Positions 8,207 through 31,606 of a DNA stretch of 37,176 nucleotides are shown in pieces. The position numbers were made by a program, and so were the translations under genes. The notes below the pieces were generated by a model, which saw only the letters and a program-made list of their open reading frames with translations, searched no databases and was not told the DNA's origin. Source of the DNA: a virus. Location of the stretch: the IMG/VR virus record IMGVR_UViG_3300023174_000368, positions 1-37,176 of that record; one strand, written 5' to 3'. Position 1 is the stretch's first letter. The number at the start of each line of letters is the position of its first letter.

Positions 8207-8569
8207 ATGGATCTCGATAAAGAAATATTTAAGGGTAAAAAAATATCTGATCTTGTCAAAGAAGTCTACGAAAAACAAAAGAATCAAGATAATAAGATCT
8301 CTGGAGAAATAGAAAGATTATCTGAGTTAATATCTTCTCCTGGAGATGCTATAATCATCGTGCCTTTACTTAAGGGATTTTTTGATTCTAGTTTAAAAAA
8401 TGACGAAGTTCTAATGAAGATACTTCAGTTATTTCAAAAAGCTGCAGAGAAAACTCAAAGCGCTGATGGTGATTCAAGTATTCTGTCTGAAAAGGATATT
8501 GCTCAATTATTTAGCGAAGTAAATTCAGTCATTGTAAAAGATCAGAAAAAATTAATCGACAATGTTTAA
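8207..8569 (+). CDS. Helical protein preceding baseplate genes
   Basis: A 120-residue protein, predicted helical throughout, with Lys/Glu/Asp-rich ends and a hydrophobic centre (IIIVPLLKGFFDSSLKNDE near residues 50-68). No catalytic motif. It overlaps the hub gene by eight bases (ATGTTTAA) and is the first gene of the structural run, so a role in baseplate assembly or as a minor structural protein is likely. Family not recognised. Confidence 0.6.
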   Translation: MDLDKEIFKGKKISDLVKEVYEKQKNQDNKISGEIERLSELISSPGDAIIIVPLLKGFFDSSLKNDEVLMKILQLFQKAAEKTQSADGDSSILSEKDIAQLFSEVNSVIVKDQKKLIDNV

Positions 8570-9461
8570 TCAATTTGATTCTTTACTTTCTCATAGCGGC
8601 GGTAGTCCATTCACTATAGCTAGAGTAAAAAAAGTTGTATTAGGAGAATATCTAGTTGATAAAAAACCTAATCCAAATTACTATTCAGAAAAATCAATGG
8701 GGGCTATATATTTTGAACCTCTATACAAAAACAAATCAGAGTCTACAGGAGATTCTGCATTTTCAAAGCCAGCTTATCCAATGTTTTCTTTTATAAGACA
8801 ATACCCAAATATTGGAGAGATTGTTTTAGTATTCCCTGGCCCATCATCAGATTTAAATGATGGCAAAGACAAACAAGATCTTTGGTACATTCCAGCTTAC
8901 TCTATTTGGAATTCTCCCCATCAAAACGTGTTTCCAGATTTAAGAGAATACGCTGAATATTTAAATACTAAGTTATCGCAACCTGGATATTCAAACTCAG
9001 GAAAAGATTATCCAGATATTCCTCAAGGCTATACTTTTACAGAAAGATCAAATATAAAATTTCTTAGACCTTTCGAAGGCGATACAATACTACAAGGTCG
9101 TTGGGGACAATCTATTAGATTTGGATCTACTGTATCTACTCTAAAATCTATAAATCCGTGGTCTAAAAGTGGATTAGATGGAGATCCAATTACGATGATA
9201 GTAAATTCCCAAAAAGATTTTACTACTGCGGAAATAAATTCTCCTGTTACAGTAGAAGATATAAATAGAGACGGATCATCAATATATCTGACATCTGGTC
9301 AAGAAATTTCTATTCTGGATTTAAACTTATTTCCAAACAGATCCTATAGTCAAGGAAAAGCTTTTAATCCTCAAGTTCAAGAAGTTATAACAATAGAAGA
9401 AATTCCTAATTCAATAGATTATGTTTCACCATTAGATCAAGACAAAAATACTTATGCTTAA
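8562..9461 (+). CDS. Baseplate hub/spike protein, N-terminal part (gp5-like OB domain)
   Basis: A 299-residue structural protein. Its central part carries FEGDTILQGRWGQSIRFGST (near residues 168-187), a pattern I associate with gp5/VgrG-like hub proteins of large myophages, where an OB-fold leads into the needle. An N-terminal beta-rich section (FTIARVKKVVLGEYL, then YFEPLY) fits an OB-fold. No lysozyme domain is visible, unlike T4 gp5. The protein stops at DKNTYA and the next gene starts eight bases earlier in another frame, with sequence that reads as a direct continuation (LNPEFPYKGNQIIISSGRV). The two probably make one spike together. Confidence 0.7.
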   Translation: MFNQFDSLLSHSGGSPFTIARVKKVVLGEYLVDKKPNPNYYSEKSMGAIYFEPLYKNKSESTGDSAFSKPAYPMFSFIRQYPNIGEIVLVFPGPSSDLNDGKDKQDLWYIPAYSIWNSPHQNVFPDLREYAEYLNTKLSQPGYSNSGKDYPDIPQGYTFTERSNIKFLRPFEGDTILQGRWGQSIRFGSTVSTLKSINPWSKSGLDGDPITMIVNSQKDFTTAEINSPVTVEDINRDGSSIYLTSGQEISILDLNLFPNRSYSQGKAFNPQVQEVITIEEIPNSIDYVSPLDQDKNTYA

Positions 9462-9897
9462 TCCTGAATTTCCATATAAAGGTAATCAAATAATAATTTC
9501 TTCTGGTAGAGTTCTAATAAATTCTAAAGAAGATGCAATTTTTTTATTTGGAAAACAAATGGTAGCATTATCATCTACACAAACAATAAATCTAGACGCG
9601 AAAGAAAAAATATTAATAGATTGTGATAAGATAGAATTGGGCAATAGAGCTGAAATATTTGGTTCACCTATAATAAAGGGAACTCCATTAATAGATCAAT
9701 TAAAAATACTATTTATAGATCTACAAAGAGCCGCAAGTCTATTACAAACGGTTGCTGAAACAGATCCAGGAGGATCTTTTCAAAATATCTCTGATGCGGG
9801 TAACGCTATATTTACTTCATGTCAAAGAATTGTAGAAGTATTTGAAAATAAAGATCATCCACAAAATCCTCTTTCAAAAAATACATACACTAGATAA
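9454..9897 (+). CDS. Baseplate spike, C-terminal beta-helix-like part (gp5 C-like)
   Basis: A 147-residue protein. Residues 10-75 are a series of short beta strands with polar turns (IIISSGRVLINSKEDAI, then TINLDAKEKILIDCDKIELG), typical of the beta-prism needle that follows the OB-fold in gp5/VgrG. The second half is helical, so the tip differs from a plain needle. The ATG overlaps the upstream stop (ATGCTTAA), so translation by reinitiation, or a +1 frameshift producing a fused form, would both work. It ends in TAATG with the next gene. Confidence 0.65.
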   Translation: MLNPEFPYKGNQIIISSGRVLINSKEDAIFLFGKQMVALSSTQTINLDAKEKILIDCDKIELGNRAEIFGSPIIKGTPLIDQLKILFIDLQRAASLLQTVAETDPGGSFQNISDAGNAIFTSCQRIVEVFENKDHPQNPLSKNTYTR

Positions 9898-12754: not shown

Positions 12755-13168
12755 ATGGCTTATAACTTAAAAAAAATATCTCCGCTAGATCAAAAGCCTT
12801 CTACCGCTATTGGAGTAAAACTTCCATTTAGCTATCCCAGTGCTTTTCAATCGGTATACACTACGAAAGAACAGACTAAGTATAATATAATAAATTATCT
12901 GCTAACGGATAAAAGAGAGAGACCTTTTAATCCTTCTTTTGGTGCTGGATTAAGATCTAAAATATTCGAACAAATTAGTTCTGACACTTTAGATAGTTTA
13001 AAAACTAGTTTAAGATCTCAGATAGAAGCTAATTTCCCTAATATCGAAATAAGCACTTTAAATATAAAAGGAGATCCAAATAATAATTCAATAATCATAG
13101 AATTTAGTTATATATTATTAAATACAGCTGAAACAGATACTGCTGTTATAGCGATACAAAATGCATAA
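12755..13168 (+). CDS. 25: Baseplate wedge protein gp25 (GPW_gp25 family)
   Basis: A 137-residue gp25/lysozyme-like wedge protein. The family core is clear: an N-terminal beta strand, then TTKEQTKYNIINYLLTDKRERPFNP (split here, residues ~41-65), G-A-G-L-R (about 68-72), a helix IFEQISSDTLDSLKTSLRS and the strand IEISTLNIKG (about 97-106), ending in the strand IIIEFSYIL. T4 gp25 (132 residues) and the P2 gpW homologue nucleate sheath assembly at the wedge, in contact with gp6 and gp53. Despite the family's old name it is not expected to be an active lysozyme. It is directly followed by gp6. Confidence 0.9.
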   Translation: MAYNLKKISPLDQKPSTAIGVKLPFSYPSAFQSVYTTKEQTKYNIINYLLTDKRERPFNPSFGAGLRSKIFEQISSDTLDSLKTSLRSQIEANFPNIEISTLNIKGDPNNNSIIIEFSYILLNTAETDTAVIAIQNA

Positions 13169-13170
13169 AA

Positions 13171-14544
13171 ATGGCAGAAAAAAAAGACATAAAATATTTA
13201 AATAAAGATTTTAATACATTTAAATCTGATTTGATAGAATACGCAAAAGCGTACTATCCAACGGTCTACAATGATTTCAATCAAGCTTCCCCAGGCTCTA
13301 TGTTTATAGAAATGGCTGCTTATATTGGAGATGTTCTTTCTTTTTATCTAGATAATCAGTTACAAGAGACTTTTTTACAATATGCTAAGCAGCCAAATAA
13401 TCTATATACGATGGCTTATATGCTTGGATATAGACCTAAAGTAACTTCTGCAGCAATTGCAGACGTAAATGTTTATCAAACAATACTTGCAAATACAGCA
13501 GGAGGTTTAAATTATCCAGATTTTTCTACAGCTATTACTATTCAAGGTGGAATGCAAATACAATCGAATGTAGATAGCTCAGTTTATTTTTATATCCCAG
13601 AAAAAGTAGATTTCACCACTTCATCTTCTTATGATCCCACTACTATAGAAGTCTATCAATCAATATCTGGAGTACCACAAACCTATTTATTGACAAAGAA
13701 AGCAAAGGCAATCTCAGGTCAAGTAAAAACTGCGACTTATGATTTCACTAATGCTCAAAGATTTTCATCTATAACTATAAATGATCCGAATATAATTTCA
13801 ATAGTTGATATAACTGATAGCAGTGGAAATAAATGGTATGAAGTACCATATTTAGCTCAAGACTATATTATAAATTCAGTAGCCAATACGAATCCATCTA
13901 CTACTGATCAAGTTCCTTATCTAATTCAAAAATTATCTGTCCCAAGAAGATTTACTTCTAGATTTCAATCTAATGAATCTTTGGTAATAGAATTTGGATC
14001 AGGAATAAATTCGGTTGCGGATTCAGCAATAATTCCAGATCCTAATTCAATAAGCGTGGGTAAAACAGTCGGTCTAAGTACGTTTACTCAATCTTTTGAT
14101 CCAACTAATTTTGTAACAACTCAAACTTATGGATTAGCTCCAAAAAACACTACACTAACAATACAATATTTAGTTGGAGGAGGAGCTGTTTCTAACGCTC
14201 AAGCAAATCAATTAACAATTCCTATATCTTTTACCGCTACTGGAATAAATCTAACAAGACAGAACACTGTCGCTGTTAATAATCCAACAGCAGCAACAGG
14301 CGGAGGAGATGGAGATACTGTACAGGAGTTGCGAATGAATACTTTAGCTCAATTTCCTACTCAGATGAGGGCAGTTACCCAACAAGACTATATGGCAAGA
14401 ACTTTAAGCATGCCAGCAAAATTTGGAAAAATATCTAAAGCGTATGTTACTAAGGACGATTCTACATTTATGAATTCTGTAGGTCAAGACATGACTCAAA
14501 GAGATCAAGTTTTAGTGAGTCTATATATTAAGTTTAGACAGTAA
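13171..14544 (+). CDS. 6: Baseplate wedge protein gp6 (gpJ-like), N-terminal part
   Basis: A 457-residue fragment of the gp6/gpJ baseplate wedge protein. The N-terminus (YLNKDFNTFKSDLIEYAKAY, then ASPGSMFIEMAAYIGDVLSFYLDN, split here) is typical of gp6: a helical start that binds gp25 and gp53. The centre is beta-rich, and a GGGDGDTVQELRMNTLAQFPTQ stretch near 374-396 matches the J/gp47 family core. It ends FRQ-stop at 14542-14544, yet the next frame carries the missing remainder. Together they would be about 600-620 residues, near T4 gp6 (660). The break is therefore most likely a frameshift, real or an assembly error. gp6 forms the inner ring that joins the wedges. Confidence 0.85.
   Translation: MAEKKDIKYLNKDFNTFKSDLIEYAKAYYPTVYNDFNQASPGSMFIEMAAYIGDVLSFYLDNQLQETFLQYAKQPNNLYTMAYMLGYRPKVTSAAIADVNVYQTILANTAGGLNYPDFSTAITIQGGMQIQSNVDSSVYFYIPEKVDFTTSSSYDPTTIEVYQSISGVPQTYLLTKKAKAISGQVKTATYDFTNAQRFSSITINDPNIISIVDITDSSGNKWYEVPYLAQDYIINSVANTNPSTTDQVPYLIQKLSVPRRFTSRFQSNESLVIEFGSGINSVADSAIIPDPNSISVGKTVGLSTFTQSFDPTNFVTTQTYGLAPKNTTLTIQYLVGGGAVSNAQANQLTIPISFTATGINLTRQNTVAVNNPTAATGGGDGDTVQELRMNTLAQFPTQMRAVTQQDYMARTLSMPAKFGKISKAYVTKDDSTFMNSVGQDMTQRDQVLVSLYIKFRQ
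14519..14544 (+). other. Frameshift window inside gp6
   Basis: The first frame is open to the stop at 14542-14544; the second frame is open from 14519, after a stop at 14516-14518. The crossover must lie between them. It contains CTATATATT at 14521-14529, a TA run where loss of one TA unit or a -2 slip (TAT 14524-14526 re-pairing on TAT 14522-14524) restores SLYILSLDSNGNLSKPSTLL, a smooth continuation. Confidence 0.65.
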
Positions 14545-14575
14545 TGGAAATTTATCAAAACCTTCGACTTTATTA

Positions 14576-15004
14576 ATGCAGAATCTTCAATCATATTTAA
14601 ATGATTATAGATTAATGACAGATGCAGTTAATATAAAATCTGCATATATAGTCAATATAGGTTGTAACTTCAACGTCATAATAAACCCAAATTTCTCAGG
14701 TCAAGATGTGATAGCTCGATGTATATTAAAAGTTCAAGATTACTTTAATATTGGTAATTATCAAATAAATCAACCTATAAATTTATCTAATATATATTCT
14801 TTATTAGATCAAGTTGAAGGAGTACAAACAGTTAAGAATGTTGAAATAGTAAACAAATCAGGCACTAGCAACGGATACTCTAATTATTCATATGATGTCG
14901 TAGGCGCAACGCTAAACGGAGTTGTGTATCCATCATTAGATCCATGCATATTTGAATTAAAATATCCAAATACTGATATTCAAGGTCGTGTAGTAACATT
15001 TTAA
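14576..15004 (+). CDS. 6: Baseplate wedge protein gp6, C-terminal part (out of frame)
   Basis: A 142-residue frame from the first ATG, but the same frame is open back to 14519 and already reads as protein (LDSNGNLSKPSTLLMQNLQS), so the true unit is longer than the ATG suggests. It contains SYLNDYRLMTDAVNIKSAYI, GCNFNVIINPNF, a QDVIARCI helix, QVEGVQTVKNVEIVN and YPNTDIQGRVV, the pattern of the C-terminal dimerisation half of gp6-type wedge proteins. Standing alone it would lack the gp25-binding half. Either the window has a sequencing error or mutation, or the phage fuses the halves by programmed frameshifting. Confidence 0.75.
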   Translation: MQNLQSYLNDYRLMTDAVNIKSAYIVNIGCNFNVIINPNFSGQDVIARCILKVQDYFNIGNYQINQPINLSNIYSLLDQVEGVQTVKNVEIVNKSGTSNGYSNYSYDVVGATLNGVVYPSLDPCIFELKYPNTDIQGRVVTF

Positions 15005-16439: not shown

Positions 16440-19400
16440 ATGGAAATAGTTAACGTATTATATAATGGAACAGGGAAATCTATTCAAAACTATTCTGATA
16501 GGGATTTATCTCTAATAAATAGTACATATATTAATACTACTTTTGGAGATCCCAATGATTATATAGAAGCGTTTATATCAGACGAAGCAGGATCTATATT
16601 GAGTTATGATTATAACCTTCAAAGTTATTTTAAAACGTCTGAGGTAAACTCTGGGACTAATAAATTCACATCTATATTAGTAGATCCTCAAAAAGATGTG
16701 GCTGACAAAGGGTTTAATAGGGGATCTGTTACTATTCAATATAATGTACTAAAAAATCTTTTTAATTCAAAATACGGGGTTTTTTATTGGATAAAAGAAA
16801 TTTCTCCTAGTAAATTAGAATTGAAATTATCCTCTCAACAATTGAGTGGAGATACCATGAGATCTGGATTCGGCGCTTATCAAAATTACATATCTCAAAA
16901 AAATTATTATTCTGATTTCTATCTTAACTTTGGAGATAATAATTTAATATTAGCCATAAATGCTGCATATGTAAACGATGACCAGGGTAGTTATATACTT
17001 GTAAAACTATATGAACCATTACCGACTGACTTCGATATAAAATCTCAGTTGTGGATAGTTGATAAATTATCAGAACCTGTTTCTTTTGCTGTTAGTATTT
17101 CTATTGAAGCAGAACAAATAGACACAACAGAAAAATTAAGAGGGCCTAATTTTAAAATTGAAGTAGCTGAAAAAATAGGTCAATCGACTCCGTATTATTC
17201 ATATAATAATTTATTTTCAGCGCAAGTATCGTCTTCAGTTAGGCAATTGATGTCTTATTATGAAGACAAAGCTGTCGCAATAAATACAGATTATACAGAT
17301 TTTAATAATTTTATACACTTTTCAAGCGCCACTGAAAGAATTAGCAATTTTGCATATAAAGTTGGACTCATAGAGAATTATAATATTCAAATTGTATCGC
17401 AATCTGCAATAACAGGAAATTCTCAAGTAGGATCTATTGCTACAGCTTCTATAAATGTTTTACAAAACAATATAGATTCTATAATAGAAAAATTTGATAA
17501 TTACGAATATTATTTATATTACGTCTCAGGAACTTACGCTTGGCCAAAATCAGGTTCCGCTAAGCCATACAATCTGTACTCCGCAACATCTTCTCAAGCT
17601 ATAAATTGGTTGGGTACACCAACAACTGTTCCAACATCTACCAAATTATCAATACTATATTCAGCATCATTATATGATCAAACTAATAAAGATTTATTAA
17701 GCGTTAGTATACCACAGTACTTATTAGATGATCCAAACAATCAGCCGTACGTTACCTTCTTGGATATGATAGGTCAACACTTCGATAATATTTGGATCTA
17801 TTATAAAGATGTGAGTAATAGATTTAATGCGACAAATGATCCTAATACTGGAATATCTTTAGATTTGGTTTCTGATGCTTTGAAAGGATTGGGAATAGAG
17901 CTATATACAAATACAAATTTATCTGACACTGCGTATTACAGTTTATTCGGAATAAACGATAAAGGAACAAGTACTTATCCTACGGGCTCTGAAAAAAATA
18001 TAACGATAATATCTTCTAGCTTGACAAGTTTACCTTACGACCAAATTCAAAAAGAGATATATAAAAGAATTTATCACAATCTCCCGTACTTACTAAAAAC
18101 AAGAGGTACAGAAAGAGGAGTAAAAGCGCTAATCGCATGTTACGGTATACCAGATTCTATTCTAACCGTAAATGAATTTGGAGGAACAGCTTTAGGAGGA
18201 GAAGATATATTCGAATTGAGTGATACTAAAATTAATATAGTGACTCCAACTGAGTTGAGTCAATCTGTATTGTCTCCAAAATCTACCCTTCAACAATATA
18301 GTAGCAATTACAGAAAAAATTCATTGAGTGTAGAAGTTGGATTTTCTCCAGCTGATATTCTGAATGCTAATATCACGTCTTCTTTAGTTTATTCAATAGA
18401 TCAATTAATAGGAAATCCATCACTAAGATATTCTAGTTCTTATGATAGCTTAGATACATACAGAAATAATTATTTCTCTTCTTCGTATAATAAACCACAC
18501 AGTATAGCAGAATACGTAAGACTTATAAAGTTTTATAACAACTCTTTATTTAAAATGATTAAAGATTTTGTACCGGCTAGATCTAATATATCTACTGGGA
18601 TAATTGTCAAACCTCACGTTTTAGAGAGAAATAAATACGCTAGAAACGAACCTCAAACAAGTATCCATAACAATTACAGCGAATCTATAGATATGATTTC
18701 TATAACAGGTTCTGCTGCTACCAGCTACACTTTTGATACCACTAAAAATAGAAATATAACATCTTCCTTAGGATATATTACTGTGACTGATTCTTTTGGA
18801 TTCGAGAAATATACGGGCGAATACCAAGGTACAGAATTAACGGCTACAAGCTTATATAGTGTAGGAGATCAAACAGAATTATCCCAAAATTCAATGCTGA
18901 GTTCGAGTAGGATAAATTATGGAGCCATTTATCAAAATGTTACAGGATCAGTTAGATCCCAAAGAAGATTGGATTTGGATTACGCTTACAATTCTAGAGT
19001 TCCGGTTAATTTTGGAATAGTTACAAAATCTATAAAAGATTCTACTATAGATAATTTTGCGACATACAATAATCCTATGAATCCTTTTGCGGAATTGCAA
19101 GATTTCAATTACAACATTCAAAGAAGTACGATACCTAGATATTATGGATCAAAAACGATTAGTCTAAAATACAATACATATACAACAGCATCAGATAGCT
19201 GGTCTGGGGATTCTTCATACGGTAGTACTGCTGCTATTGATAGAAATTCTTTTAAAGTAGGTTGGGTAAAAAATATACCAGTCAAAGCTTTGAATTTTCC
19301 AGACAAAACAACAGTCTATTTAAAGTACTTAATAGATTCGACTCAAAATATAACTGATTTGTCTTTAGAAAATAATAATATCTTTGAGGTACAAAATACA

Positions 19401-21482
19401 TTTAAATCTGGAGATACTGTAAATTTATCAGTATCAGATGTCAATAAACCGAGCAATCAAAAATCATTAGATGGAACAAAAACTATTTGGAAAGGAGGAT
19501 TTTCTTTCGATCCTATATTATTTAGAGAGAACGGAGAAGCTCTATATTTTCAATATTTAGACTACTATAAAAAATACACTAGTTACGAAGGCTTTTATAC
19601 AGAAAATAGAGCATATAGAAACTTTTTTAGCCAACCAGGAGTTAATACAAGTTATGTAAATAATGTTAACCAATTTGATCCAAATCAAATTCTCGCAAAT
19701 GATCCTAATGGACCTGGAATTAGCGGATATTATTCAAACTATTATGATAGACCAGCTGTACCTCAGAGATATTTAGATCCTGCTACAGATCCCATACTAT
19801 CAGATACAGCATATACTTATGACGAATGGAATACTTTTATTACTAGTAATATATGGTTCTCAACTCGAGCGCCTAAATATGATAATAGCAATCCATACGC
19901 AGCAAGTTTTGCAACAACTCCATATCCATATATGAGAAAAACATGGAGACTACCCGTTTATATGAACGAGTTTACTAAACCATGGACACAATTGAATGAT
20001 CCAGATGATAGCGTAAATCAAGATCCTGCAATATTTGTAGCTCCCACTAATGCAACATATGAAATCGGATCTGGTATTTCTTTTGAGATGCTTATAACTG
20101 TAAACGCTTCGGCAGGTACTAATACGACAAGTGGACAATTAACAAATCAAATCTTATCTCAAGGCACGGCTTTTAAAATATTTGGACTTTTAGAAAAAAG
20201 TACAGATGGAGGTAATACTTGGTCAGTAATATCTGCAGGTAATTTATCAGCTCAATTTTATACTTATACTAATAATACACTTCGTATAAATGCTTCTAAT
20301 TTAAGCCAATGGATTCCTGTTACTATTAAACTAAATAATACTGGAACTAATAGCGTTACTTTACAAAGAGGAGATCGGATTAAATATAATATATTTATCG
20401 TTGATCTATTGGCTTCATTTAGACACTGTAGTACGTATTCTATTCGTTTTAATAACGGTTCCAATAGTTCATATTTACAACAGATACCTTATAGTCAATT
20501 AACATATACGGATTTTTATGGAAATTTCGTTAATCAAAACTCAATAATTGGTACTCCACCTTTTAATTTCTTTGGTTGTTATAATACACAAGATCCAAGA
20601 TATACTTTTGACACTAGCGCAGTAATTGATCAAAATGCAAATTTTTTTGGAATCAATAATAATATTCTAACAATTAATGACCCTTTACTGTCTTTATTTG
20701 TAACGTCTTCACAATTTTTACCTGACACGTCTTCAGCCGTAGGAACATATGAAAATTACTCGCCCGTTATAAATCCTTTATCTATACAACCAGGAGATAT
20801 AATAAGATTTGGATCTTTTAATTCTCCACAGATCAAGTACGCCACTGTGATATCTTCTACTCCGCCAAATACGACAGTTTTTACACCAACAACAAGTCAA
20901 TTTTCTTTTAATAATGTACCAGTTACTTTCTTTACTAACAATAGCTATTATAATTCAGTTGTTCCAGGAGGAGGAAATTCTTCTATTATAAGAGTTTCAA
21001 ATGTCAGCTCTTTTGGATATGGATCTCTAAATAGTTGGCTAAATCAAACTCCGACTTTTGGCTCAATAAAAGTATCTTTAAGTAATTCTCTAAATGATAA
21101 TGCTGTTCTGAATCTTAAACCAACCAAAGCCTATTATGATGGCACATATATTTATATATTCATATCAGAAGCTGTGATACCAGAAACACTAACTCAAGCA
21201 ACTATAATATTAATTGGAGGTAATGCTGTTACAAGTACAAATCTTACTTTTACGCTTAACTCATATATAGATGCTACTGCTATAAATGTAAATAAAGATT
21301 TTGCAATTTTGCGTCAAAAACCTGATGAAACTTCGGTGATAGTAGATTTTAAAAAAGTAGATGGAGAAGTATCTCAAACTATTTTAGTACCGCAAGATGC
21401 TAATATAGCAATAAAATCTAAAGTGGGAGAATTATTTAGAAACTTTAATACAGATTTACAAAATACTACAACAACAAATTAA
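16440..21482 (+). CDS. Giant baseplate wedge protein (gp7-like, with gpI/P2-tail-like segment)
   Basis: At 1680 residues this is the largest gene here. Beta-rich N-terminal repeats (~1-330, many short strands with Asp/Ser loops) are followed by a helical centre (~430-600). The centre includes VTFLDMIGQHFDNIWIYYKD and YHNLPYLLKTRGTERG plus VKALIACYGIPDS (about 545-572), the 'LLKTKGT-x-x-G-v' pattern of gpI/P2-type tail proteins, which join gpJ/gp6 in the wedge. T4 gp7 (1032 residues) fills the equivalent place. From ~720 on the protein is Tyr/Asn/Ser-rich with repeated FNYNIQ and YYDRP-type loops, and from ~1180 a series of Ig- or carbohydrate-binding-like beta domains. The C-terminal half may present fibre-like or receptor-contacting modules. 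Assignment to gp7 rests on order and size. Confidence 0.65.
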   Translation: MEIVNVLYNGTGKSIQNYSDRDLSLINSTYINTTFGDPNDYIEAFISDEAGSILSYDYNLQSYFKTSEVNSGTNKFTSILVDPQKDVADKGFNRGSVTIQYNVLKNLFNSKYGVFYWIKEISPSKLELKLSSQQLSGDTMRSGFGAYQNYISQKNYYSDFYLNFGDNNLILAINAAYVNDDQGSYILVKLYEPLPTDFDIKSQLWIVDKLSEPVSFAVSISIEAEQIDTTEKLRGPNFKIEVAEKIGQSTPYYSYNNLFSAQVSSSVRQLMSYYEDKAVAINTDYTDFNNFIHFSSATERISNFAYKVGLIENYNIQIVSQSAITGNSQVGSIATASINVLQNNIDSIIEKFDNYEYYLYYVSGTYAWPKSGSAKPYNLYSATSSQAINWLGTPTTVPTSTKLSILYSASLYDQTNKDLLSVSIPQYLLDDPNNQPYVTFLDMIGQHFDNIWIYYKDVSNRFNATNDPNTGISLDLVSDALKGLGIELYTNTNLSDTAYYSLFGINDKGTSTYPTGSEKNITIISSSLTSLPYDQIQKEIYKRIYHNLPYLLKTRGTERGVKALIACYGIPDSILTVNEFGGTALGGEDIFELSDTKINIVTPTELSQSVLSPKSTLQQYSSNYRKNSLSVEVGFSPADILNANITSSLVYSIDQLIGNPSLRYSSSYDSLDTYRNNYFSSSYNKPHSIAEYVRLIKFYNNSLFKMIKDFVPARSNISTGIIVKPHVLERNKYARNEPQTSIHNNYSESIDMISITGSAATSYTFDTTKNRNITSSLGYITVTDSFGFEKYTGEYQGTELTATSLYSVGDQTELSQNSMLSSSRINYGAIYQNVTGSVRSQRRLDLDYAYNSRVPVNFGIVTKSIKDSTIDNFATYNNPMNPFAELQDFNYNIQRSTIPRYYGSKTISLKYNTYTTASDSWSGDSSYGSTAAIDRNSFKVGWVKNIPVKALNFPDKTTVYLKYLIDSTQNITDLSLENNNIFEVQNTFKSGDTVNLSVSDVNKPSNQKSLDGTKTIWKGGFSFDPILFRENGEALYFQYLDYYKKYTSYEGFYTENRAYRNFFSQPGVNTSYVNNVNQFDPNQILANDPNGPGISGYYSNYYDRPAVPQRYLDPATDPILSDTAYTYDEWNTFITSNIWFSTRAPKYDNSNPYAASFATTPYPYMRKTWRLPVYMNEFTKPWTQLNDPDDSVNQDPAIFVAPTNATYEIGSGISFEMLITVNASAGTNTTSGQLTNQILSQGTAFKIFGLLEKSTDGGNTWSVISAGNLSAQFYTYTNNTLRINASNLSQWIPVTIKLNNTGTNSVTLQRGDRIKYNIFIVDLLASFRHCSTYSIRFNNGSNSSYLQQIPYSQLTYTDFYGNFVNQNSIIGTPPFNFFGCYNTQDPRYTFDTSAVIDQNANFFGINNNILTINDPLLSLFVTSSQFLPDTSSAVGTYENYSPVINPLSIQPGDIIRFGSFNSPQIKYATVISSTPPNTTVFTPTTSQFSFNNVPVTFFTNNSYYNSVVPGGGNSSIIRVSNVSSFGYGSLNSWLNQTPTFGSIKVSLSNSLNDNAVLNLKPTKAYYDGTYIYIFISEAVIPETLTQATIILIGGNAVTSTNLTFTLNSYIDATAINVNKDFAILRQKPDETSVIVDFKKVDGEVSQTILVPQDANIAIKSKVGELFRNFNTDLQNTTTTN

Positions 21483-21485
21483 AAA

Positions 21486-23312
21486 ATGATTAATTTATAT
21501 TATACGCCATCGTCAGGATCTTTATCCTCGAGTATATTAATAATTCCAGATAATACTAATATAAGTCAATCTTCATATCGAGATATAACTTTAGATATAA
21601 CTTCTAGCCAATATAAAGTATCAGGATCATCTAATTTTTTAAATTATACTAGAGTATATATTAAAAGTGGTAGTACGACTTACGCGTCTTTCCCTGTAGA
21701 TGAAACAAATATATACTACTTAACTCCATACGAATACATATATTATCCTGATCCTAATAAAATTATAACTTCTTCTGCATCTGATGTTTTTGTAGATTTC
21801 CAAGTTAATTCTCCAGTCACATCTTCATTAAATAAATTCGAAATTGTGAATTTGTTATCGTCTTCTTATTCATCGTCTACATTTATGACAAGTTTTGTAT
21901 CTGGAACTTTGTATAACTTACAATTGTCAAGTAGTGGATTATTTTCTTCAAGAAGTATACTAATAGTTAACACTACTAACAATCAATTTGAGTATTATAC
22001 AAGTTCTTTTAGTAGTAATATATCCACTTATTTTTCTTCTAGCAATAATTTTAACGATTATTCGATATCAGCTTCTGTCAGTGAATATCCTTACGTAAAA
22101 TTATCATATACAGAATCGTACTATCCAGTTACTAACACCAGCAGTTTGAGTGATTGGAACGCTTATTTAAATATCACTGCTTCCTTTTTATCGACTTCAT
22201 TAAATTCATTTTATTTAGGTGGAGGAAATTTGTCAAACGTAACCAATATTGGTGATATTAATAATAGCATAAGTTACGTTACCTTATCAGATTTCGACTC
22301 TTCAGGTTTAAATAGTCTAACCACACTTAAAGCTATCGCAAGCGATCTTACTAATTTTCCAGATGCTTCGAAATTACCAAATCTTACTACTTTAGAATTA
22401 TATGATAACGCGATAACCGGTAGCATATTGTCACTAAATAATTTAAGTAGTTCCTTTATTAACACCTTTACTATTGGTAATAATAATATATCAGGAAGTA
22501 TTAACGATTTGTTATCAATTTTACCTCAATCAATTAGTACTGTAGAGTGCTCTATAAATAATTTCACTGGTAGCGTGCCTGATTTATCTTCGTATTTGCA
22601 ATTGTCATCTTTTGATTGTTCGTATAATCGACTATCAGGAAGTATAGCTCCACAAACAAAACAGTTCTCTTTGAACACTCTTAATTGTAATAACAATTAT
22701 CTTAATGGATATATACCAGATTTAAGTAGTTCATATGCTTTACAATATTTTGATTGCTGCTGCAATAATTTATCGGGTAGTACTCCTGATTTATATCCTA
22801 ATTATATAATGCAATCTTTTAAGTGCTCTAATAATAAAATGTCGGGTAGTATATCTAATATATCAAGTTCTTATTTGCATCCATCTGAATTATCGTATTT
22901 CGATTGCAGCTATAATGCTTTAACTGGTAATATACCATCAATGGAGACATACGTTACAAAGATGACGGTTTTTAATTGTTCTAATAATAAATTATCAGGG
23001 AAAATTCCTTCTACATACAATACATTAATGACCACATTTATATGTAGCAACAATCAATTAACCAGTTATCGTGGATTAGATGGAGATTATCCTATATCTA
23101 CGTATATGACGTATTTTGATGCTCAAAATAATCTACTATCACAAGCAGCTGTAGATCGAATACTGCTTGAAATAGACACCTATTGCGCTTTACCCTCAGA
23201 GGGTGTAGGAGAAGTATATCTAGGAGGAACTGGAAATTCTGCGCCTTCTGCGGCTGGCATAGTCAGCAAGAATTCATTGATAGCTAAAGGTTGGACGGTT
23301 TCAACTAATTAG
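21486..23312 (+). CDS. Leucine-rich-repeat tail protein, candidate adhesin
   Basis: A 608-residue protein. Residues ~1-250 are extremely Ser/Thr/Tyr-rich beta strands, probably an attachment domain. From ~296 to ~555 there are about ten leucine-rich repeats of ~22-26 residues. The consensus is close to L-x-x-F-x-C-S-x-N-x-L-S-G-S-I-P-D-L, e.g. LSSFDCSYNRLSGS, LQYFDCCCNNLSGS and MTVFNCSNNKLSGK. A Cys recurs in the position of the inner strand, forming a ladder. The end (VDRILLEIDTY, then GTGNSAPSAAG and GWTVSTN) is the cap I know from Bacteroidota-type LRR proteins. LRRs bind proteins or sugars, so a receptor-binding or host-recognition part of the virion is the best guess. It lies four bases after the wedge gene. 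Confidence 0.75.
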   Translation: MINLYYTPSSGSLSSSILIIPDNTNISQSSYRDITLDITSSQYKVSGSSNFLNYTRVYIKSGSTTYASFPVDETNIYYLTPYEYIYYPDPNKIITSSASDVFVDFQVNSPVTSSLNKFEIVNLLSSSYSSSTFMTSFVSGTLYNLQLSSSGLFSSRSILIVNTTNNQFEYYTSSFSSNISTYFSSSNNFNDYSISASVSEYPYVKLSYTESYYPVTNTSSLSDWNAYLNITASFLSTSLNSFYLGGGNLSNVTNIGDINNSISYVTLSDFDSSGLNSLTTLKAIASDLTNFPDASKLPNLTTLELYDNAITGSILSLNNLSSSFINTFTIGNNNISGSINDLLSILPQSISTVECSINNFTGSVPDLSSYLQLSSFDCSYNRLSGSIAPQTKQFSLNTLNCNNNYLNGYIPDLSSSYALQYFDCCCNNLSGSTPDLYPNYIMQSFKCSNNKMSGSISNISSSYLHPSELSYFDCSYNALTGNIPSMETYVTKMTVFNCSNNKLSGKIPSTYNTLMTTFICSNNQLTSYRGLDGDYPISTYMTYFDAQNNLLSQAAVDRILLEIDTYCALPSEGVGEVYLGGTGNSAPSAAGIVSKNSLIAKGWTVSTN

Positions 23313-23355: not shown

Positions 23356-23366
23356 ATATTTATTAA
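23356..23366 (+). promoter_or_regulatory. ATATTTATTAA motif before distal virion genes
   Basis: Located in the 74-base gap after the LRR gene, 20 bases before the ATG at 23387. The A-rich gap is otherwise plain. Of all copies this one has the most ordinary promoter-to-start spacing. Candidate promoter for 23387-25956. Confidence 0.45.
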
Positions 23367-23386: not shown

Positions 23387-24046
23387 ATGTCATATTTAAG
23401 TAGTACATCAGTCGTAGTAGACGCAATACTAACAAAGAAAGGAAGAGAATTATTAGCAAGAAACGATGGCTCTTTCCAAATTACGCAATTCTCATTATCA
23501 GATGATGAAGTCGATTATAGTTTATATAATCCAAACCATCCTTCAGGATCAGCTTTCTATGGAGAAGCTATAGAGAACATGCCAATATTACAAGCGTATC
23601 CAAATGATCAAGAGATAATGAGATACAAGTTATTGACTCTTCCAAGAGGAACAGCGAAATTACCTGTATTGGATTTAGGGTACAGCAGTATCACAATAAA
23701 ACAAGGATCGTCTCTATCGGTAACTCCTCAAACATTAAATTACTTAGGAGCAAATACAACTTTCGAGCAATCAGGATACGTTGCTACTATAGGAGACGTT
23801 CGTACTATGTCAACATTCACGGGAGTGGGTATAAATACGGCTGAAGCTAATGCATTAAATACAACAACTACTATAGGAACGAATGTGAGTTCTACAGTAA
23901 TAGGCACAACAATAAACTTAACTGCAACAACAATAAATACTTTATTCGGAAGCAACACAACTCTATACACGACTCTTACAGTTATAGGAAGAGATTCAGG
24001 AGCTAGAATATCAATCCCAGTACAAATCACAAAAGTAACATCATAA
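23387..24046 (+). CDS. Virion structural protein
   Basis: A 219-residue protein with a conserved-looking N-terminal half: SSTSVVVDAILTKKGRELLA, then NDGSFQITQFSLSDDEVDY and ENMPILQAYPNDQEIMRYKL (residues ~5-90). The second half is Thr/Asn/Gly-rich beta sequence ending in an Ig-like strand set (ARISIPVQITKV). I recognise the N-terminal pattern as a recurrent uncharacterised structural protein of large T4-like phages of marine and freshwater origin. It is one base from the next structural gene. It may be a tail-tip, collar or decoration protein; the exact place is unknown. Confidence 0.6.
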   Translation: MSYLSSTSVVVDAILTKKGRELLARNDGSFQITQFSLSDDEVDYSLYNPNHPSGSAFYGEAIENMPILQAYPNDQEIMRYKLLTLPRGTAKLPVLDLGYSSITIKQGSSLSVTPQTLNYLGANTTFEQSGYVATIGDVRTMSTFTGVGINTAEANALNTTTTIGTNVSSTVIGTTINLTATTINTLFGSNTTLYTTLTVIGRDSGARISIPVQITKVTS

Positions 24047-24047
24047 T

Positions 24048-25085
24048 ATGTCATTTACAAAATTCGATCCAACAGATCTAGTAGTATCATCAGATTCGGT
24101 AACTGCTCCAGCATGGAGTAGTAATTTACCTACATTAAGTCAATTTTATACGGGTTCAACAGGCATAAGTGCGAATAATTATTATGTGGACGTATATAAT
24201 ACTTCTTCAGCTGACATTTCGGCAGCAATTCAATTTTCTATAGCGTATGGACATATAAATGGAACTGGTTCCGCGCCTCTTAATAGTCTCATTCCAAGTA
24301 AAACTCCAACAAGAATTAACTACGGTCAATTTAGAAATATAATATATGGAGATAATGAAATTAATGTTTCATTTGGTACCGGAATGACGTCTTCTCTAGA
24401 TTTAATTGCTATAGCTATCGATAGAAATAGATATAAAGAAAGTTTATTTCCTGGTACTTTTAATTTAACTTTAACATCAGGATCTACAACCATTAAATTA
24501 ACTGATAATTCTAACGATATAAGTACTGTAACGTATTTAGACTGCGGAAGAGCTTACGATATTGTTTCTGGATCTTACGGATCTGCCGCCAGTTCTCCAC
24601 TAATCACAGGAGCACCGGCTGTTGGATACACTGCAACAGGATCTTACGGATTATTTTTGCCCGATGTTGGACTTATAATTTTGAATCCTTACGCGTTAAG
24701 AGCGCCAACTAATAGGGGAGGATTAGGAATGGGTTCTTATAACGTTGTGGGATCTACTGCTAATGGATGGTATCCTGCGGGAGAAATACTTAAAACTATA
24801 CAATCTGGTAGCAATTTCCAATTAAATTCTCAAGAGACCATCTCTTCTGATTATATATTCGTTAGAATAAAAAATGCTGAATACAACTACACAACTAATC
24901 CTTCTTTTATTTCAGGATCAGGAAATTTGATCTATTCTAATTACATATATAATCCTCAAACATACATTACTACAGTTGGTATGTACAACAACAATAACGA
25001 ATTATTAGCAGTAGCTAAGTTATCTAAACCACTCGTAAAAGATTTTACCAAAGAAGCTTTGATTAGGGTTAAATTAGATTGGTAA
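24048..25085 (+). CDS. Virion structural protein (paralogue A)
   Basis: A 345-residue beta-rich protein. The C-terminus carries AEYNYTTNPSF, then PQTYITTVGMYNNNNELLAV and AKLSKPLVKDFTKEALIRVK (residues ~275-345), a strongly conserved block that I associate with T4-like cyanophage virion proteins. A FGTGMTSSLDLIAIAIDR segment lies near 107-124. The following gene ends in a related block, so the pair look like diverged duplicates. Likely a fibre-base or baseplate-periphery protein (T4 gp9/gp10-like place). Function inferred from position only. Confidence 0.65.
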   Translation: MSFTKFDPTDLVVSSDSVTAPAWSSNLPTLSQFYTGSTGISANNYYVDVYNTSSADISAAIQFSIAYGHINGTGSAPLNSLIPSKTPTRINYGQFRNIIYGDNEINVSFGTGMTSSLDLIAIAIDRNRYKESLFPGTFNLTLTSGSTTIKLTDNSNDISTVTYLDCGRAYDIVSGSYGSAASSPLITGAPAVGYTATGSYGLFLPDVGLIILNPYALRAPTNRGGLGMGSYNVVGSTANGWYPAGEILKTIQSGSNFQLNSQETISSDYIFVRIKNAEYNYTTNPSFISGSGNLIYSNYIYNPQTYITTVGMYNNNNELLAVAKLSKPLVKDFTKEALIRVKLDW

Positions 25086-25098
25086 TACAAGATAAAAA

Positions 25099-25956
25099 AT
25101 GAGTAGAGCATCAAATACACTAAAGGCGTCAGATATATCAACTACTCCTATAAAATTGAGATATGCTTTCACTGCGTCAAGTGTAGACTATAGCACTTAC
25201 GGTATAACAGTTATTAGCGGATCTAATGGATCAGTGACAATTACGGGTTCTGTAAATCAAAACATTGTTAACTATCGTACAATACGACAACTATATTATC
25301 AAAATTGGTTAACAGGATCTTTAATACCATCTGCTAGTTATTGGAACTCTAATCAACAATCTACTGCTTGTTCAGGATCTCCCGAATACGAAAATAGATA
25401 CTTTCCAACAGAATCAAATGCACGCATACAATGTATAGCAATTCCTCCAACAGTTTTTGGTGAGCAAATATCTAGAAATTCATTGTTTATAAGAGCAACA
25501 GCAGGAGGAAGTAATCCGTATACTTTTACTTTTTATGATGATGGAAATGGAAACATATCTGGTTCGGTAAATTCTACTAATTACGGACAAGTAGGAAACG
25601 TAATATACTCTCAGGGAATAGTTATTATGACCGATAGCGCAAGTGTTGTATTAGATTGCATAACCGGATCGTATACAACATGTTCATTCTTAGCAGAGAC
25701 TACAATATATCAAAACGAGTATAGGTGTCACGTAAGCGAAAACGATTTTAATTACACACAAAATCCGAGCGCAACTAAATCAACTACTACGGGATCTTAT
25801 ATAGATGCTATAACGGGCTCTGATTTTAGACCTTACGCAACAAGCGTTGGATTATATAATGCAAGAAATGAATTACTTATTGTAGGTAAACTATCTACTG
25901 CGTATCCCATTCCTCCAAACACCGATATGACTTTTGTCATCAGAAACGATAGCTAG
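25099..25956 (+). CDS. Virion structural protein (paralogue B)
   Basis: A 285-residue protein sharing with its upstream neighbour a terminal block: NDFNYTQNPSATK, then PYATSVGLYNARNELLIVGK and a Pro-rich end (AYPIPPNTDMTFVIR). N-terminal residues 1-110 include a helix around NYRTIRQLYYQNWLTGS and four Cys residues. The centre has an FTFYDDGNGNISGS beta hairpin. Probably assembles with paralogue A or occupies an equivalent site. Last structural gene before the nuclease. Confidence 0.6.
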   Translation: MSRASNTLKASDISTTPIKLRYAFTASSVDYSTYGITVISGSNGSVTITGSVNQNIVNYRTIRQLYYQNWLTGSLIPSASYWNSNQQSTACSGSPEYENRYFPTESNARIQCIAIPPTVFGEQISRNSLFIRATAGGSNPYTFTFYDDGNGNISGSVNSTNYGQVGNVIYSQGIVIMTDSASVVLDCITGSYTTCSFLAETTIYQNEYRCHVSENDFNYTQNPSATKSTTTGSYIDAITGSDFRPYATSVGLYNARNELLIVGKLSTAYPIPPNTDMTFVIRNDS

Positions 25957-25974: not shown

Positions 25975-26433
25975 ATGACAAATTGGTTGTATCAAGGTCA
26001 AGAGTACCTCGCTCTAGAAGACTTTCCAGAAAACTGTATCGGATTCGTTTACAAGATCTATAATGCAGACACAGGCAAGATCTACATCGGTAAAAAAATC
26101 TTAAGAAACTTACTTACAAAGAAACTGACTCTCAAAGAGAAATCGGAGTGGAGCAAACCAGGAAAAGTTCCTAGTAAAACCAAGATTGTAAAAGAGTCGG
26201 ATTGGGCCAAATACTACGGCAGTTGTAAACCTCTATTGGAAGACGTTAAAGTTTTGGGTCCACACAAATTCAAGAGAGAGATCATAGAGTTCTGCTTTAA
26301 CAAAAAACAATTGGGATATTACGAAGTGTACTATCAAATGGTATACGAAGTACTCGCTACCGACTCATATAATGAAAATATATTAGGTCGTTATTTTAGA
26401 AAAGACGTCAAGCAACAGATTGAAAATCAATAA
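25975..26433 (+). CDS. GIY-YIG-type endonuclease
   Basis: A 152-residue protein with a GIY-YIG-like core. GFVYKIYNADTGKIYIGKK (residues ~23-41) has the two Tyr-centred strands (the GIY is replaced by GFVY). DWAKYYGSCKPL with KREIIEFCFNK gives the Arg-containing helix, and the E in YYEVYYQMVYEVL (about 122-134) fits the catalytic Glu. Unlike the other two GIY-YIG genes here it lacks NUMOD3 repeats, so it is closer to short phage nucleases of the T4 Seg/DenA type than to a modular homing enzyme. It may cut host or competitor DNA. It ends the plus-strand block. Confidence 0.7.
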   Translation: MTNWLYQGQEYLALEDFPENCIGFVYKIYNADTGKIYIGKKILRNLLTKKLTLKEKSEWSKPGKVPSKTKIVKESDWAKYYGSCKPLLEDVKVLGPHKFKREIIEFCFNKKQLGYYEVYYQMVYEVLATDSYNENILGRYFRKDVKQQIENQ

Positions 26434-28080: not shown

Positions 28081-28090
28081 TATAAATATT
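28081..28090 (-). promoter_or_regulatory. AATATTTATA motif
   Basis: Minus-strand copy of the recurrent element, three bases before the ATG at 28077. It overlaps the stop codon of the upstream homing-endonuclease gene. Confidence 0.4.
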
Positions 28091-28742
28091 AACTATTTTC
28101 TAATATCCAAGTTCCTCCAAGGATTTTAGTTTTTTTGTGGACTAATCCAACAATATTATGTCTTGCTATATTATATTTTTCTGAAAATGCTTTACGAGTG
28201 CCTTCGAATGTTTCTTTAGTTTCAATATTAAAGAATTTATAAACGGCATTGTCTGATGTTCTTTCTCTAATAGATTGTTTAAATTCTTCTGAAGCTTTTT
28301 TACCTTTATTTTTATTTGGTTTTCTTAAATTCGATAAATGATTTTCTGAAAAAACCCTATCTTTATGAGCAATACTTAATTTTAATTTTGTCTCTTTTGA
28401 ATGTTTTTTTCCTAGCATTCCGCTAGGCTTTCCCAAATGGTGATTTTTTATTTTATCTCTAACTTCTTGAGTAAATATTATTTCTGCACCTCTAGCATTA
28501 TTATACCATTCATCGCTCGATATATCTATAGATTTTAAATAATCTTGTTCATACTTTAAACACTCGTCTCTAGTGCCCTCAAAAAGTATCTCTCTTTCGA
28601 ATTGATCTGTTTCAAAATCTTTCCAAAAATTATCGTTAGAAGTTGACGAAATATATCCATCGTCTAAAGTTCCTTTGTGGTAACCTACGTATTTTTTGCA
28701 TTTGGTTTTATTTATCCACAAATATACAAATGAGTCTTTCAT
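28089..28742 (-). CDS. GIY-YIG homing endonuclease with NUMOD3/NUMOD1-like modules
   Basis: About 217 residues from the ATG at 28742. I prefer this start because MKDSFVYLWINKTKCKKYVG begins the GIY-YIG domain directly; a start at 28781 would add 13 residues read through the promoter-like motif. After the nuclease domain (~1-90) comes a NUMOD3-type DNA-binding repeat with GKPSGMLGKKHSKETKLKLS (about 114-133) and a second, weaker copy (GKKASEEFKQSI). The C-terminal module (VYKFFNIETKETFEGTRKAF) resembles NUMOD1. It belongs with I-TevI/Seg-type free-standing homing enzymes, which cut alleles lacking them and spread by repair. It lies next to the base-modification genes. Confidence 0.8.
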   Translation of the reverse strand: MKDSFVYLWINKTKCKKYVGYHKGTLDDGYISSTSNDNFWKDFETDQFEREILFEGTRDECLKYEQDYLKSIDISSDEWYNNARGAEIIFTQEVRDKIKNHHLGKPSGMLGKKHSKETKLKLSIAHKDRVFSENHLSNLRKPNKNKGKKASEEFKQSIRERTSDNAVYKFFNIETKETFEGTRKAFSEKYNIARHNIVGLVHKKTKILGGTWILENS

Positions 28743-28745
28743 ATC

Positions 28746-28759
28746 TTTATTATAAATAT
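28746..28759 (-). promoter_or_regulatory. ATATTTATAATAAA motif before homing endonuclease
   Basis: On the minus strand ATATTTATAATAAAGAT leads directly into the ATG at 28742. It is nearly identical to the leader of the GIY-YIG genes at 25975 and 31606. Confidence 0.5.
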
Positions 28760-28797
28760 ATGCTTTTATTGTAAAAAACACTTATGATAAAAACATG

Positions 28798-31009: not shown

Positions 31010-31606
31010 TTATACTTTTCTTTTTTTAGCTGCGTTACGAATTTTTTCTATTGTTTCTTGAGAATGCTTTTTTCCAAAAAATGGATGATTAGATCCAGTT
31101 TTTATTTCACTCATTTTTTTCAATGTTTCCTCAGAATGTTTTTTTCCTTTTTTAACTTCGCTCATATTCTTTCTATGAGAATCTGAAAATATACGACCAT
31201 TAGGAAAACATATTTTTCCTAAATGAGATAGTCTATTTTTCTCTTTTGATTCTTCTGAATTAACTCTTCCTAAGCTTGATTCTCTCATTTTTTGTTTTGT
31301 TTCCAATGAGTGTTTGCCTTTACTTCCAGGTTCTCTAACATTTAACATATCGTATCCGCAATCTTTATGTTGTTGCCAATAATATGTTTCATACTCATTT
31401 AATATGTCTTGGGATATATCAATAGGTAATTCATGAACTATTTCAAATTTATGAGATTCCCAACCATATTTTTTTAAAGAATAAAAAAGTTTTCTCTGTC
31501 CTTCGCATGTAATTTTTTCATACGATCTAATTCTAGACTCTATAGTCCAACTTTGACCAATATATACTTTATTTATAGGAGATGTTATTTTATATATACC
31601 AACCAT
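31010..31606 (-). CDS. GIY-YIG homing endonuclease with NUMOD3 repeats
   Basis: A 198-residue protein. MVGIYKITSPINKVYIGQSW is a canonical GIY-YIG start (G3-I-Y, Y15-I-G), with R26 and R28 in the SRIRSY helix and the catalytic Glu probably E72-type in LNEYETYYWQQH. Four NUMOD3-like repeats follow (GKHSLETKQKMRESSLG, the SEESKEKNRLSHLG copy, GKKHSEETLKKMSEIKTG, GKKHSQETIEKIRNAAK), each a short helix that reads the minor groove. Like I-TevI and Seg enzymes it probably moves as a free-standing element. It has inserted between the ADDT-like and MBD4-like genes, splitting what looks like one operon. Confidence 0.9.
   Translation of the reverse strand: MVGIYKITSPINKVYIGQSWTIESRIRSYEKITCEGQRKLFYSLKKYGWESHKFEIVHELPIDISQDILNEYETYYWQQHKDCGYDMLNVREPGSKGKHSLETKQKMRESSLGRVNSEESKEKNRLSHLGKICFPNGRIFSDSHRKNMSEVKKGKKHSEETLKKMSEIKTGSNHPFFGKKHSQETIEKIRNAAKKRKV

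What the first reader, a model, noticed from the sequence alone, without database searches (positions are those of the whole stretch)
21486..23312. Leucine-rich-repeat protein with a cysteine ladder inside the tail module
About ten repeats L-x-x-F-x-C-S-x-N-x-L-S-G-S-I-P lie in a protein placed between the wedge and other virion genes. LRRs are unusual in characterised phage tails. They are common in Bacteroidota surface proteins, so acquisition from a host and use as receptor-binding module is plausible. Repeat number could vary and change host range.
Basis: partly seen in the sequence, partly recalled or inferred. Interest (0 to 1): 0.7.

Follow-up and report, generated by a model that had tools for sequence, protein, structure and literature searches.

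The report
Leucine-rich-repeat protein on phage tail
A gene for a spring-shaped leucine-rich-repeat protein, of the kind plants use as cell-surface receptors, sits as an optional extra among the tail genes of an uncultured phage; it probably works as a removable, length-variable gripping arm, and similar arms turn up in many unrelated phages although the published literature hardly mentions them.

Summary
ORF 21486-23312 (608 aa) holds 10-11 leucine-rich repeats of 23 residues with one Cys per turn (seven strict CxxNxLxG; shuffles average 0.02). AlphaFold2 gives a confident LRR solenoid (residues 300-608), closest to plant receptor ectodomains. The protein is modular: a conserved N-terminal region (69% identical to an ortholog), a spacer, the LRR array, and an alpha/beta C-terminal cap ending PSxxG...L...GW. 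The gene lies in a tail module syntenic with Flavobacterium phage immuto, directly behind a large wedge-linked protein. Among 68 readable relatives the junction is usually empty (53). One carries a 22-repeat LRR protein and one an LRR-less protein with the same N-terminus; a separate search found a ~10-repeat ortholog. So the gene is an optional extra whose LRR part is gained, lost and resized. The cap recurs in about 30 viral contigs, often behind LRRs and beside tail genes, including a tail protein of cultured Nonlabens phage P12024S, and rarely in Bacteroidota genomes. Best explanation: an accessory, swappable tail adhesin. Virion presence, receptor binding, and repeat variation between strains are not shown. 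A vibriophage precedent exists, so this is a new variant of a known kind.

The parts
21486..23312 (+). LRR protein gene, 608 aa
   Evidence: ORF; Pfam LRR_4/LRR_1; AlphaFold2 model m6dabcd52f207
21486..21734 (+). N-terminal region, residues 1-83, shared with L093, L012 and the LRR-less L043; proposed attachment domain
   Evidence: 69% identity to L093, the best conserved part of the protein; L012/L043 share it; structure not confident
21735..22121 (+). Spacer, residues 84-212, predicted beta-rich, most divergent part
   Evidence: 34-39% identity to L093; second-half similarity to L012 residues ~303-390; low pLDDT
22122..22382 (+). Pre-LRR segment, residues 213-299, probably the N-terminal cap of the solenoid
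   Evidence: 57% identity to L093; conserved NTSSLSxWNxYLN-like stretch in L093, L012
22383..23105 (+). LRR array, residues 300-540, about 10 repeats LxxFxCSxNxLSGSIPxLSSxxx with one Cys per turn
   Evidence: core positions 80% and inner-surface positions 26% identical between ortholog repeats
23106..23309 (+). C-terminal cap, residues 541-608 (last repeat strand, then helix, strand, helix, strand; ends PSAAGIVSKNSLIAKGWTV)
   Evidence: pLDDT mostly 80-95; recurs in 29 viral contigs and in P12024S gp10
16440..21482 (+). Protein A, 1680 aa, immediately upstream (3-nt gap to the LRR ATG); wedge-linked protein conserved in relatives
   Evidence: 33% identity to immuto gp109
12755..13168 (+). gp25-like baseplate assembly protein
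   Evidence: 42% identity to immuto gp113
13171..15004 (+). gp6-like baseplate wedge gene, read as two ORFs (13171-14544 and 14576-15004)
   Evidence: phrog_219 baseplate wedge 2.2e-18; both halves match immuto gp112
23387..24046 (+). Protein B, 219 aa, highly conserved, marks the downstream edge of the insertion point
   Evidence: 73% identity to immuto gp107; used to collect 80 relatives
24048..25085 (+). Protein C, 345 aa, tail-module protein present in several diverged copies in relatives
   Evidence: 49% identity to immuto gp106; similar C-termini in gp105 and five Mel-JY01 proteins
25099..25956 (+). Protein D, 285 aa, related to the C family and to immuto gp105
23357..23363 (+). TATTTAT element upstream of B; the LRR gene itself has none in the 50 nt before its ATG

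Best explanation
The gene encodes an accessory tail adhesin. SHOWN: a modular protein (conserved N-terminal region, spacer, about 10-turn LRR solenoid, alpha/beta cap) is encoded directly behind the large wedge-linked protein A in a tail operon. Most close relatives have no gene there; two relatives have an LRR protein with the same N-terminal region, and a third has that region without LRRs. The solenoid core is conserved while its surface diverges. INFERRED: the N-terminal region fastens the protein to the tail periphery, the spacer holds the LRR solenoid outward, the cap closes its hydrophobic end, and the exposed LRR face binds a surface molecule of the host (glycan or outer-membrane protein). 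The number of turns sets arm length and binding area. Because the gene is optional, it would be a supplementary or reversible binder rather than the essential receptor-binding protein. The Cys ladder replaces the third Leu of each repeat and packs inside the solenoid as free thiols; it is not read as a disulfide ladder.
For: Synteny with the immuto tail module. Position between A and B in three LRR phages: window, L093, L012. Slot empty in 53 of 68 relatives with both neighbours readable. LRR-less protein with the same N-terminus in L043. N-terminal region is the best conserved part, 69% against 50% LRR and 36% cap. Core positions 39/49 against inner-surface positions 11/42 identical. LRR fold confident, like ligand-binding plant receptor ectodomains. 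The same cap sits at the C-terminus of a tail protein of cultured phage P12024S and of LRR proteins next to tail/neck/head genes in other contigs. Precedent: in vibriophage P. lipares a tail-module insertion with an LRR-like protein is the main strain difference and accompanies host-range differences (PMC10945359).
Against: No virion proteomics. N-terminal region not modelled with confidence and not detectably related to A, C or gp108-like proteins by profile, so attachment to the tail is inference. Surface divergence is also what unconstrained surface would show. Only three LRR members of this slot are known. No population data.
Confidence: 0.62

Rival explanations
1. The protein is in the virion but binds something other than the host receptor: mucus, algal polysaccharide, particles or other surfaces, keeping the phage where hosts are.
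For: Optional gene, as expected of an environmental binder; LRRs bind many ligands; the P. lipares authors invoke mucus adherence (PMC10945359).
Against: No habitat or ligand evidence here.
Confidence: 0.15
2. The protein is a structural or assembly accessory of the tail (spacer, wedge stabiliser), and the LRR is a passive scaffold.
For: Directly coupled to protein A (3-nt gap; overlapping in L093 and L012).
Against: Absent in most relatives that keep A and B; tandem repeat number differs two-fold; surface positions poorly conserved.
Confidence: 0.12
3. A late-expressed non-virion gene (moron): intracellular effector, counter-defence or superinfection factor that happens to lie between tail genes.
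For: Optional extra at a gene junction; no direct virion evidence.
Against: Shares its N-terminal region with an LRR-less protein at the same place; the cap occurs at the end of a tail protein of P12024S; other capped LRR genes lie beside head, neck or tail genes.
Confidence: 0.09
4. Assembly chimera: a bacterial or eukaryotic LRR gene wrongly joined into a phage contig.
For: Sequence resembles plant LRRs.
Against: Ortholog in the same gene order in an independent metagenome (L093); L012 and L092 agree at 99.99% over 7.8 kb from two metagenomes and include the A-LRR junction.
Confidence: 0.02

Closest known systems
LRR-like protein in the tail-module insertion of vibriophage Planavibriovirus lipares (PMC10945359)
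   Same: Optional insertion in the tail module; LRR signature; proposed phage-host interaction; differs between strains with different host range
   Different: There the LRR call is weak (10% HHpred) and no cap is described; here the LRR is unambiguous, about 10-22 turns, with defined N-terminal region and cap, in a different phage group
P12024S gp10 (Nonlabens phage, tail-type protein)
   Same: Same C-terminal cap (36-40% identity over ~60 aa) behind repeats, in a cultured marine Bacteroidota phage
   Different: Repeats are LTSFPxxDTS-type, not plant-type LRRs; N-terminal part matches known tail-protein families
crAss-like phage tail-associated BACON tandem repeats (PMC6949934)
   Same: Tandem domain array shared with Bacteroidota proteins, associated with phage tail proteins, proposed host binding
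   Different: BACON is a different, beta-sandwich-type domain, not an LRR solenoid; no sequence relation implied
Plant LRR receptor ectodomains (GSO1, ERL1, BRI1, MIK2)
   Same: Fold and LxGxIP repeat class; best PDB sequence and structure matches
   Different: Third Leu replaced by Cys; no kinase or transmembrane part; about 20% identity, so fold likeness and not a transfer claim
Bacteroidota LRR proteins
   Same: LRR part alignable, best hit 34% identity; a few genomes carry the cap
   Different: Mostly longer proteins; matches confined to the repeats; cap rare

Membership tests
Leucine-rich-repeat proteins (Pfam LRR clan, plant-specific LxGxIP class) | Tandem 20-30 residue repeats with LxxLxLxxNxL signature above curated cut-off | tested here: met
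   LRR_4 32.3 bits (cut-off 27), LRR_1 22.7 (20.6); 10-11 repeats of ~23 aa; C replaces the third L
Leucine-rich-repeat proteins (Pfam LRR clan, plant-specific LxGxIP class) | Solenoid fold | tested here: met
   AlphaFold2 pLDDT mostly 75-95 for residues 300-608; Foldseek hits to plant LRR ectodomains E 7.6e-12
Phage tail / virion proteins | Encoded in the tail module in conserved gene order | tested here: met
   Synteny with immuto and L093/L012
Phage tail / virion proteins | Present in purified virions | not testable with these tools
   No proteome found for any LRR-carrying relative; no MS data in the Flavobacterium phage paper
Phage tail / virion proteins | Sequence match to a known tail-protein family | tested here: not met
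   No PHROG match at E 0.001
Phage receptor-binding proteins | Binds host surface / determines host range | not testable with these tools
   Needs binding or adsorption assays
Phage receptor-binding proteins | Conserved attachment region plus variable distal region | tested here: met
   69% N-terminal region against 50% LRR, 36% cap; L043 keeps the N-terminal region and lacks the LRR
Diversity-generating retroelement target | Near-identical template repeat elsewhere plus reverse transcriptase | tested here: inconclusive
   No near-identical copy of any LRR-gene stretch elsewhere in the window; the window is a 37 kb fragment
Recently expanding tandem array | Near-identical units at DNA level | tested here: not met
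   Window units ~51% identical; contrast L101 (4.9 x 69 bp, 91% matches) and L106 (2 x 138 bp, 99%)

The most novel reading that the evidence does not exclude
LRR array plus PSxxG/GW cap is a mobile adhesin cassette of tailed phages: it is fitted onto different tail-attachment regions, grows and shrinks by tandem duplication of 69-bp units, and is shared between unrelated phages, prophages and secreted proteins of Bacteroidota. This would make LRRs a phage counterpart of Ig-like, BACON and C-type-lectin display domains.
Probability: 0.4. Interest if true: 0.62.

Novelty: new variant of a known kind. Interest (0 to 1): 0.48.

Why it matters
LRRs are a versatile protein-recognition scaffold, known best from plant and animal immunity. 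If phages use them as optional, length-variable tail arms, host-range change could come from adding or removing turns rather than from point mutation, and the C-terminal cap gives a simple marker to find such arms in metagenomes. It also gives a concrete test case: three phages with the same tail module that differ by having about 10, about 10 or 22 turns, and many with none.

Tried and rejected
Close relatives by single-protein scan of viral contigs: none, and no match in 50,697 phage records; solved by using neighbour B and the N-terminal alignment. Immuto gp108 was first taken as a non-homologous occupant of the same slot; rejected, because in phages with gp108-like proteins A is mostly short (962-1141 aa, and 1265 aa in immuto) and gp108-related segments match inside longer A proteins of other phages, so it is more likely a detached part of A. 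Homology of the N-terminal region to A, C or gp108-like proteins: none. PDB relatives of A, C and B by profile: none useful. Confident structure of the N-terminal 299 residues: failed, pLDDT 37. Cap alignment of eight sequences too divergent for a contig scan; four used instead. DGR template in the window: none seen. Antifreeze function (weak PDB hit 6w78): rejected, because it ranks far below plant receptors and nothing else points to ice binding. L105/L106 copy-number comparison not done: both contigs start inside the array.

Full report
WHAT IS THERE. The window is a 37,176-base IMG/VR virus record with 32% G+C. ORF 21486-23312 encodes 608 aa. Its second half is an LRR array: repeats start at residues 300, 325, 350, 373, 396, 419, 442, 469, 493, 515 and 541, with consensus LxxFxCSxNxLSGSIPxLSSxxx and one Cys per turn. 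Strict CxxNxLxG occurs seven times; 2000 shuffles average 0.0185. Pfam LRR_4 and LRR_1 pass their cut-offs. The nearest solved sequences and folds are plant LRR receptor ectodomains. AlphaFold2 is confident for residues 300-608, poor for 1-299, and poor again when the N-terminus is folded alone.

ANATOMY. Comparison with orthologs gives an N-terminal region (1-83), a predicted beta-rich spacer (84-212), a pre-LRR segment (213-299), the LRR array (300-540) and a cap (541-608) with helices at 553-566 and 589-600 and strands at 576-578 and 604-606. Identity to ortholog L093 is 69, 34-39, 57, 50 and 36% respectively. At equivalent repeats, buried or signature positions (1, 4, 6, 9, 11, 13, 15) are identical in 39 of 49 cases and inner-surface positions (2, 3, 5, 7, 8, 10) in 11 of 42 (summed by hand; the repeat register was set by eye). 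The Cys takes the place of the third Leu of each repeat, a core position; free thiols in the core are more likely than disulfides in a protein made in the cytoplasm (general knowledge, not tested).

SETTING. Upstream lie gp25-like (12755-13168) and gp6-like baseplate wedge genes (13171-15004; phrog_219, E 2.2e-18), a 355-aa and a 113-aa protein, and the 1680-aa protein A. Downstream lie B, C, D and a SegE-like GIY-YIG gene. Flavobacterium phage immuto has the same order (gp113, gp112, gp111, gp110, gp109, gp108, gp107, gp106, gp105). The LRR ATG follows the A stop after 3 nt and has no TATTTAT element in the 50 nt before it, whereas B does.

THE SLOT. Using B as bait, 80 relatives were fetched. 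In 68 of them the A-B junction can be read: 53 have nothing between A and B, 15 have something (the tally also counts the window as filled). Ten of the 15 carry a gp108-like protein, which looks like a detached C-terminal part of A, because A is shorter there and gp108-related segments match inside longer A proteins. Two more, L087 and L090, share part of that gp108 core; L033 is an intein-like interruption of A. Real extra genes behind a full-length A were seen in L012 (1019 aa, about 22 LRR turns, same type and cap) and L043 (202 aa, same N-terminal region, no LRR). A search with the N-terminal alignment found L093 (595 aa, about 10 turns) in the same position. L092 from another metagenome repeats the L012 arrangement at 99.99% identity over 7.8 kb. 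So the gene is optional and the LRR part is gained, lost or resized on a common N-terminal region.

WIDER OCCURRENCE. The cap is found in 29 viral contigs by pattern scan (some of these were already found). Those read include plant-type LRRs with Cys (L101, L102, L105, L106), plant-type without the ladder (L104), Bacteroidota-type LRRs (L121, L124, L125) and irregular LRR-like repeats (L110, L114, L115, L117). Neighbours in several are head, neck, tail or tail-fibre genes (L101, L107, L113, L120, L124). In cultured Nonlabens phage P12024S the cap ends gp10, whose body matches a tail-protein PHROG at 1.8e-52. L101 and L106 have near-identical 69- or 138-bp units, which points to recent tandem duplication in this class; the window array itself is old (units ~51% identical).

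ORIGIN. In Bacteroidota, 66 of 296 sampled genomes have matches to the LRR-to-cap query, the best 34% identical and nearly all confined to the repeats. The cap occurs in 7 of 395. One of these has secreted-looking proteins with an apparent signal peptide (L138/L142), others look like prophage tail regions by eye (L136, L139, L140). Sharing is shown; direction of transfer is not.

HOW IT MOST LIKELY WORKS. An accessory adhesin: N-terminal region on the tail, LRR arm outward, cap closing the end, exposed LRR face binding a host-surface molecule. Shown: anatomy, position, optionality, size variation between relatives. Inferred: virion presence, attachment, ligand. The nearest published precedent is vibriophage P. 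lipares, where a tail-module insertion including an LRR-like protein accompanies host-range differences (PMC10945359). A catalogue of LRRs in dsDNA viruses is cited there (Matsushima 2021, Arch Virol 166:43-64), but it is not held and I could not read it. BACON arrays of crAss-like phages are the analogous case with another fold (PMC6949934).

VERDICT. Observation confirmed; interpretation partly supported; a new variant of a known kind.

Noticed in passing
window: upstream of genes starting at 8207+, 12294+, 23387+, 25975+, 1065-, 3931-, 28077-, 31606-, 34518-: TATTTAT lies 11-30 nt before the start codon, same strand, in 9 of 40 genes (about 0.95 expected), and TATTTAT or a close variant lies upstream of B in the relatives printed. 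Probably a phage-specific promoter or start element.
   Followed up: partly
window 13171-15004: The gp6-like wedge gene is read as two ORFs in different frames (457 + 142 aa) that match one immuto protein of 607 aa: a frameshift or split in the phage or the assembly.
   Followed up: no
window 8562-9897: Two ORFs (299 and 147 aa, 8-nt overlap) both match immuto gp116: another gene split relative to that phage.
   Followed up: no
window 25975-26433, 28089-28781, 31010-31606: One SegE-type GIY-YIG gene (PF19835, 8.9e-28) and, by eye, two more GIY-YIG-like genes on the other strand.
   Followed up: no
L033 7412-8188 and L071 1-312: Intein-like (Hint) sequence interrupting the C-terminal part of protein A in L033; a similar stretch lies before the slot in L071 (38% identity).
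   Followed up: no
L101 2885-4180; L106 3-512: Capped LRR genes with near-identical 69-bp or 138-bp tandem units, encoding a Cys-ladder LRR like the window's; good places to look for repeat-number change.
   Followed up: partly
L104 2699-4186 and 4511-6622: Capped LRR gene two genes upstream of a protein with a pectate-lyase-like PHROG match (1.5e-25), possibly a tail depolymerase near an LRR arm.
   Followed up: no
G001 (Bacteroidetes groundwater MAG; L128-L135): Fourteen matches to the cap in one genome, mostly in ~400-aa open frames: a lineage-specific expansion of unknown function.
   Followed up: no
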